A DNA stretch of 47,681 nucleotides from assembly GCA_018712605.1 (NCBI GenBank), contig DVGR01000076.1, positions 1 through 47,681 on the forward strand, given 5' to 3'. The position numbers and the translations under genes are program-made. This DNA is from Candidatus Choladousia intestinigallinarum (lineage in GTDB: Bacteria > Bacillota > Clostridia > Lachnospirales > Lachnospiraceae). A model generated the notes under the pieces. It was not told the origin of the DNA and ran no database searches. It saw only the letters and a list, made by a program, of their open reading frames with translations. Shown piece by piece: positions 30,248-30,457 of the stretch (the first letter of the stretch is position 1; every line of letters starts with the position of its first letter).

Positions 30248-30457
30248 CCTATAGAGTAAACGGATATGACCGCTGACGCGGTCATCACCACGCATAAAAG
30301 CCACGGATTGCTCTGCGCCTTTGGCGCTCCCGCAATCCTACCCGTATTCGTAATCCGCACTACCGTGCTCCTTACTCATACGGGTTAGCGTCTCAAATGT
30401 CCATGCAGCCTTGCGTGCCAGCACGCAGTCTGCCTGCCCATTGAGACTGGCTTTTAT
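30248..30457 (-). ncRNA. Dispersed structured element, copy 1 (candidate RNA, function unknown)
   Basis: Minus strand P0 ATAAAAGCCA/TGGCTTTTAT enclosing three hairpins, plus a 3' hairpin; 136 nt align ungapped to 47546-47681 with six compensatory base-pair changes. Confidence 0.78.

What the first reader, a model, noticed from the sequence alone, without database searches (positions are those of the whole stretch)
30248..30457. Candidate undescribed structured RNA: two divergent copies with six compensatory base-pair changes
Seen directly: 30248-30383 aligns ungapped to 47546-47681. Of 19 differences I count, 12 sit in stems and form six compensated pairs. Hairpin near the 3' end (minus strand): ATGACCGC-GTCA-GCGGTCAT vs ATGCCTGC-GCCA-GCAGGCAT (two pairs). 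5' hairpin: GTAA/TTAC vs GCAT/ATGC (two pairs) and GCAC/GTGC vs GGGC/GCCC (two pairs). The other 7 differences are in loops and linkers. On the minus strand the 5' hairpin reads CCCGTAT-GA-GTAA-GGA-GCAC-GGTA-GTGC-GGA-TTAC-GA-ATACGGG: symmetric GA/GA and GGA/GGA internal loops (sheared G.A potential) and GNNA-type tetraloops, which on the other strand would be only pyrimidine mismatches. Inference: the minus strand is the functional RNA strand. Function is unknown and I do not recognise a family.
Basis: partly seen in the sequence, partly recalled or inferred. Interest (0 to 1): 0.88.

Follow-up and report, generated by a model that had tools for sequence, protein, structure and literature searches.

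The report
Mobile hairpin repeat mistaken for RNA
The two sequences are copies of a known Rfam family (Clostridiales-1 "RNA") that turns out to be a small jumping DNA repeat with dozens of copies per genome in gut Lachnospiraceae, whose hairpins are kept paired in a way that looks like DNA rather than RNA selection.

Summary
The family is not undescribed: both copies are Rfam RF01699, Clostridiales-1 (122.8 and 78.2 bits, cut-off 48). It is also not a two-copy gene. The window's genome has 61 matches, same-genus genomes 0 to 38 or more, and a complete Lachnospiraceae genome 80. One subfamily (B) has terminal inverted repeats and exact 7-bp target duplications in 20 of 40 copies (chance 1.6%), the mark of a transposed MITE. 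A relative lacks the window copy at thrS, and six lack a GAM79 copy. Stems co-vary almost without G-U: 190 double against 7 single changes, GU 0.9% sense, 0.5% antisense; SRP and T-box RNAs of the same genus show ratios of 0.3-0.4 and GU of 9-23%. Loops are mostly DNA-type GNA/GNNA. I conclude a non-autonomous mobile DNA hairpin repeat. Its mobiliser was not found, and an RNA role is not excluded. In GAM79, some copies end in a reverse complement of the upstream gene's last codons, hinting at target-templated insertion.

The parts
30293..30458 (-). Copy 1, A-type Clostridiales-1 unit: closing stem P1 plus arms P2, P3, P4 (Rfam match 30296-30455)
   Evidence: RF01699 122.8 bits, gathering 48; fold
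30449..30458 (-). P1 5' arm TATAAAAGCC (pairs with 30293-30302)
30293..30302 (-). P1 3' arm GGCTTTTATG
30390..30447 (-). arm P2 (AGTCTCAATGGGC... allele)
30341..30384 (-). arm P3 with GA/GA and GGA/GGA internal loops and GGTA loop; GCAC/GTGC allele
30305..30338 (-). arm P4 (GGATTGCGGGAG...GAGCAATCC), the most conserved hairpin; AAA triloop in this copy, GNA in most copies
30266..30285 (-). 3' hairpin outside the Rfam model, loop GTCA on the minus strand, followed by the conserved 3' end GTTTACTCTATAGG (30248-30261)
47594..47681 (-). Copy 2, A-type unit cut by the contig end: P1 3' arm, P4, P3 (GGGC/GCCC allele)
   Evidence: RF01699 78.2 bits, 5' truncated
47564..47583 (-). 3' hairpin of copy 2 (ATGCCTGC-GCCA-GCAGGCAT)
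30461..30495 (-). thrS T-box terminator hairpin and T-run; copy 1 starts directly behind its T-run (insertion point)
   Evidence: empty site in relative G022; A-type preference for terminators
30489..30720 (-). T-box leader of thrS (not part of the repeat)
   Evidence: RF00230 91 bits, just under its cut-off of 93

Best explanation
The feature is two copies of a high-copy, non-autonomous mobile DNA repeat of Lachnospiraceae whose repeat unit is what Rfam lists as Clostridiales-1 RNA. Shown: dozens of dispersed intergenic copies per genome with copy number varying widely within one genus; several subfamilies, tandem copies, internal-deletion derivatives and mosaic copies; terminal inverted repeats and 7-bp target duplications in the B subfamily; empty sites in relatives. 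Inferred: a transposase acting in trans moves it, the cloverleaf is recognised or protected as folded single-stranded or cruciform DNA, and pairing is maintained at the DNA level. The two window copies (A type) are two allele combinations drawn from that population, so their compensated changes are largely alleles of whole stems rather than six separate RNA compensations. A-type copies prefer the DNA just behind intrinsic terminators, here between the thrS T-box terminator and the thrS operon. They are probably transcribed passively and need not have a function for the host.
For: Transposition of B: with ends chosen by inverted repeat alone, 20 of 40 copies have a perfect 7-bp duplication (1.6% for shuffled partners) and 25 of 40 have at least 6 of 7 (10%); independent scan z = 6.5 for 7 bp at that boundary. 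Miniature derivatives keep both ends. Empty sites: thrS in G022; a GAM79 copy absent in six relatives. B orientation is random to genes: 13 same/same against 12 opp/opp, 7 of 18 leading in GAM79. Mosaics: all four combinations of P2 x P3 alleles (12, 6, 3, 2) and P3 x P4 (11, 6, 2, 2). DNA-level pairing: both:one-sided changes 190:7, GU 0.9%, antisense GU 0.5%, against SRP 24:58 with GU 22.7% and T-box 12:39 with GU 8.7%. Loops: GNA 209, GNYA 83, GNRA 22, UNCG 1; GNA and GNNA loops with GC pairs make extraordinarily stable DNA mini-hairpins (PMC4686876). Terminator adjacency of A: 13 of 35, against 2 of 39 for B and 3.7% of random positions.
Against: No mobiliser: no Y1 transposase in the own genome (genome 87% complete) and no TIR-bounded autonomous element in G000 or in complete GAM79. 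A-type copies, the type in the window, show no target duplication, so their mobility rests on dispersion, mosaicism and one diverged empty site. Purine internal loops are strongly conserved and are not erased, which implies selection on the folded form, possibly as RNA. In GAM79 the non-B copies are mostly oriented with genes (42 of 49 leading), and sense G-U slightly exceeds antisense there (3.4% against 1.8%). No expression data were available.
Confidence: 0.72

Rival explanations
1. A multicopy functional non-coding RNA: each copy is transcribed and the sense-strand fold binds a protein or other RNA, as the Rfam entry (type Gene; sRNA) supposes.
For: Very strong conserved fold and covariation; conserved sheared-type GA and GGA loops on the sense strand; sense fold more stable than antisense; sense orientation with genes for 42 of 49 non-B copies in GAM79.
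Against: Wobble pairs nearly absent and about equally rare on both strands, with broken pairs (41) outnumbering one-sided changes (7), opposite to SRP and T-box RNA; 0 to 80 copies between related genomes; TIR and target duplications; copies missing at orthologous loci.
Confidence: 0.15
2. A mobile element whose copies act as mRNA elements at gene ends, like ERIC: the closing stem includes the upstream gene's stop codon and may change stability or translation of neighbouring genes.
For: GAM79 non-B copies lie mostly between co-directional genes, often beginning within 15 nt of the upstream stop codon; P1 pairs with host coding sequence in at least three copies; ERIC is a documented precedent whose effect depends on orientation (PMC2229807).
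Against: Orientation to genes is random for B copies and mixed for A copies; no expression data; low wobble content.
Confidence: 0.3
3. The paired changes are a mutational artefact: template switching in quasi-palindromes copies one arm onto the other, and no selection on structure is needed.
For: Almost no single-sided intermediates; one copy (C173) has P3 converted to a perfect palindrome.
Against: Internal loops would also be erased, yet GA/GA and GGA/GGA stay almost invariant, and the same fold is kept in highly diverged GAM79 copies.
Confidence: 0.2

Closest known systems
Clostridiales-1 RNA, Rfam RF01699 (Weinberg et al. 2010, PMC2864571)
   Same: Both window copies pass the family's gathering score, with the same cloverleaf P1-P4. 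The 2010 paper lists it as 'RNA? y, cis-reg n, Clostridiales and human gut'.
   Different: The main text says nothing of copy number, ends or mobility. The unit extends beyond the Rfam model (3' hairpin and end), has TIRs and target duplications in one subfamily, and its pairing statistics do not look like RNA.
Bacterial MITEs: RUP, ERIC/IRU, Correia, YPAL (PMC2229807)
   Same: Short, intergenic, high copy number, inverted ends, target duplication, strongly folded transcripts.
   Different: Multi-arm cloverleaf rather than one long hairpin, 7-bp ATNNNAT-type duplications rather than TA, and no parent insertion sequence found.
REP/REPIN repeats moved by RAYT transposases (PMC3733652, PMC8266576)
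   Same: Intergenic hairpins downstream of coding regions, with presumed single-stranded DNA recognition.
   Different: 160-250 nt, no Y1 transposase gene in the host genome, and target duplications in B.
Group IIC introns (recalled from memory)
   Same: Insertion next to intrinsic terminators, as A-type copies do.
   Different: No intron fold or reverse transcriptase: no group II intron family among Rfam matches in the window.

Membership tests
Clostridiales-1 RNA (RF01699) | covariance-model score above gathering (48 bits) | tested here: met
   122.8 and 78.2 bits
Clostridiales-1 RNA (RF01699) | consensus structure supported by covariation | tested here: met
   23 distinct copies, 36 of 47 pairs with double changes, 0 of 500 shuffles
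Clostridiales-1 RNA (RF01699) | acts as a transcribed sRNA | not testable with these tools
   no RNA-seq available
MITE | short, non-coding, high-copy, dispersed | tested here: met
MITE | terminal inverted repeats | tested here: inconclusive
   met for B (GATNNNAGGGTCAAAAG-type); not found for A, the type in the window
MITE | target-site duplication | tested here: inconclusive
   met for B (20 of 40 perfect 7 bp; z 6.5); not detected for A (best z about 3 with no consistent boundary)
MITE | related autonomous element with the same ends | tested here: not met
   no inverted TIR pair bounding a transposase in G000, G008/G014 or complete GAM79
REP/REPIN | associated RAYT (Y1) transposase | tested here: not met
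   PF01797 absent from the own genome
T-box / cis-regulatory leader | constant association with one class of gene | tested here: not met
   neighbours differ from copy to copy and orientation is mixed
Group IIC intron | intron RNA fold and reverse transcriptase | tested here: not met
   no group II intron family among Rfam matches in the window; unit of 160-250 nt

The most novel reading that the evidence does not exclude
Some copies are inserted by a target-templated mechanism. In complete GAM79 the closing stem P1 is locus-specific (0 of 20000 permutations reach the observed pairing). In three copies the element's 3' end is a 10-12 nt perfect reverse complement of the upstream host gene's last codons (fructose-6-phosphate aldolase ...AVFGE*, oxaloacetate decarboxylase alpha ...GAYPV*, a third gene ...NYLSQ*). 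Those C-termini are conserved in homologues or relatives, so the 5' arm is host sequence. The element would fold as single-stranded DNA and prime synthesis back on the flank, or otherwise tailor its end to each target: a mode of insertion, and a host-element hybrid RNA at stop codons, that I know of no precedent for.
Probability: 0.3. Interest if true: 0.82.

Novelty: new variant of a known kind. Interest (0 to 1): 0.6.

Why it matters
An Rfam 'sRNA' family of unknown function is better read as a mobile DNA repeat, and the reading comes with a cheap general test: compare double to single changes and sense to antisense wobble against true RNAs of the same genomes. Other orphan 'structured RNAs' found only by covariation could be screened the same way. 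Lachnospiraceae are major gut bacteria; these repeats break their assemblies (contig C237 ends inside one) and may alter operons at stop codons and terminators. If the host-complementary ends are generated at insertion, they point to an undescribed insertion mechanism.

Tried and rejected
Two-copy RNA gene: rejected (61 copies). Y1/RAYT mobiliser: none in the own genome. Autonomous partner by TIR pairs: the only kb-scale pair in GAM79 with both ends close to consensus (2891197/2893911) encloses ordinary genes including a permease-like protein and shikimate kinase; the C10 solo end is not a transposon. Phage or plasmid carriage: no match. A-type target duplication: not found. Empty sites of C181 copies in G019, G022, G034, G025, G002 and G009: locus absent. 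G019 matches the window contig at about 97-99% in the flanks but lacks the C181 locus, so probably bin contamination; not used as strain evidence. Literature on RF01699: only the 2010 paper gives biology; no paper found on Lachnospiraceae MITEs of this kind.

Full report
OBSERVATION. Window 30248-30383 and 47546-47681 align without gaps: 136 nt, 19 differences, 12 of which form six compensated pairs in the minus-strand fold. The structure is a cloverleaf: P1 closes the unit (30293-30302 with 30449-30458), with arms P2 (30390-30447), P3 (30341-30384) and P4 (30305-30338), and a separate 3' hairpin (30266-30285) lies outside. Folding is strong on either strand and as RNA or DNA, so it does not decide strand or molecule.

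IDENTITY. Rfam assigns both copies to RF01699, Clostridiales-1 RNA, well above its gathering score. The family was listed in 2010 as a probable RNA, not cis-regulatory, from Clostridiales and human gut (PMC2864571); I found no later work on its function. So the finding is not an undescribed RNA.

IT IS AN INTERSPERSED REPEAT. The window's own draft genome (2.97 Mb, 279 contigs, 87% complete) has 61 matches, 48 above gathering. The complete genome of Lachnospiraceae bacterium GAM79 (AP018536) has 80. An exact pattern of the core hairpin hits at least 113 stretches of GTDB genomes, nearly all Lachnospiraceae, and a copy-1 search finds no phage or plasmid record. Copies fall into subfamilies: A, the window's type (TTTACTATAAAAGCC... 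or TTTACTCTGAAAGCCC...), A with a 50-nt insert, B (GATGCCAGGGTCAAAAG... and GATACAAGGGACAAAAGG...), C (TAAGTCCAGTCTC...), and a very diverse set in GAM79. There are tandem copies, deletion derivatives that keep both ends, and one copy whose P3 is a perfect palindrome. A copies are mosaics: the allele pairs tested occur in all four combinations. The two window copies carry the two common P3 alleles, which accounts for much of the compensated change.

TRANSPOSITION. For B copies the ends are inverted repeats. When ends are chosen by inverted repeat alone, 20 of 40 distinct copies are flanked by a perfect 7-bp duplication, consensus ATNNNAT (1.6% for shuffled flank partners), and 25 of 40 by at least 6 of 7 (10%). 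An independent scan over boundaries and lengths peaks at that position (z 6.5). For A copies no duplication is seen. The window copy is missing at the thrS leader of relative G022, where the T-box terminator T-run is followed directly by other sequence. A-type copies sit directly behind a terminator hairpin and T-run in 13 of 35 cases, against 2 of 39 B copies and 3.7% of random positions. A GAM79 copy is missing at the orthologous site of six relatives. No mobiliser was found: no Y1 transposase in the own genome and no transposase between inverted ends in G000, G008, G014 or complete GAM79.

RNA OR DNA? On 23 distinct A and C copies the structure is strongly supported (96.2% paired cells, 36 of 47 pairs with double changes, 0 of 500 shuffles as high). 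But the mode of change is unusual: 190 double against 7 one-sided changes and 41 broken cells, with G-U in 0.9% of cells on the sense strand and 0.5% on the antisense strand. SRP RNA (23 distinct sequences) gives 24 against 58 with 22.7% G-U, and the thrS T-box (30 sequences) 12 against 39 with 8.7% G-U, all from the same genus. Single-sequence folds agree. Terminal loops are GNA (209) and GNYA (83), rarely GNRA (22) or UNCG (1); GNA and GNNA loops closed by G-C pairs are the extraordinarily stable DNA mini-hairpins (PMC4686876). I read this as pairing kept at the DNA level. The counter-evidence is that GAM79 copies show a small sense excess of G-U (3.4% against 1.8%), and conserved purine internal loops show that the folded form itself is selected.

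POSITION AND HOST-COMPLEMENTARY ENDS. B copies are random with respect to genes and replication. In GAM79, where GC skew places the origin near 0 and the terminus near 2.0 Mb, non-B copies lie mostly with the leading strand and the genes (42 of 49; 81% of ORFs there are leading), often starting within 15 nt of the upstream stop codon. Their P1 stems are locus-specific (mean run 6.7 bp against 4.7 for swapped partners, 0 of 20000 permutations). In three copies the 5' arm is host coding sequence and the element's 3' end is its 10-12 nt reverse complement: TCTTTGGTGAAT (aldolase ...AVFGE*), CTGTCTAAATAA (oxaloacetate decarboxylase alpha ...GAYPV*) and CTTGTCGCAA (...NYLSQ*). The first two C-termini are conserved in nearly all of 120 homologues each, and the third in most relatives lacking the insertion. 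Either the 3' arm is templated by the target at insertion or it is selected to pair afterwards; I cannot tell which. The window's A copies have a fixed P1 instead.

VERDICT. Known Rfam family, new reading: a mobile DNA hairpin repeat, MITE-like for subfamily B, with DNA-type covariation. Membership as a MITE is shown for B only. For the window's A type, mobility is inferred from dispersion, mosaicism, terminator targeting and one diverged empty site.

Noticed in passing
window 30489-30720 (-): T-box leader of thrS scores 91 bits, just under Rfam's cut-off of 93, so gathering-mode annotation would miss it.
   Followed up: partly
G064 (AP018536) 2766351, 2175089, 3578268; L330, L328, L329: Element 3' ends are 10-12 nt reverse complements of the upstream host gene's last codons, forming the closing stem with host sequence.
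   Followed up: partly
G000 contig C173:4859-5007 (L065): One copy has P3 converted into a perfect palindrome of about 43 nt, a template-switch footprint.
   Followed up: no
G000 C145, C79, C255, C116, C50, C207 and others: A 50-nt module (GGCGCTGCGTGCCAGTGGCACGCGTTTAGCGCCGACCGAAGCGGAGCGGAGACTTGC) is inserted before P4 in many A copies, and similar modules occur in other Lachnospiraceae copies (L192, L214).
   Followed up: no
G019:C175 against window contig C237: About 97-99% identity in the thrS flanks between two genomes listed as different species, while the C181 locus is absent from G019: probably a misbinned contig.
   Followed up: partly
G000 contigs C237, C158, C183, C124, C165, C119: Contigs end inside or next to repeat copies, so the repeat breaks short-read assemblies and copy numbers are underestimates.
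   Followed up: no
L150 (G000:C10) 2220-2390: Another repeated sequence (TTCGNTCGAACGCAAATCGGCGCAGGTACAATGTCTGGCGACATTG) next to a single B end, in two copies.
   Followed up: no
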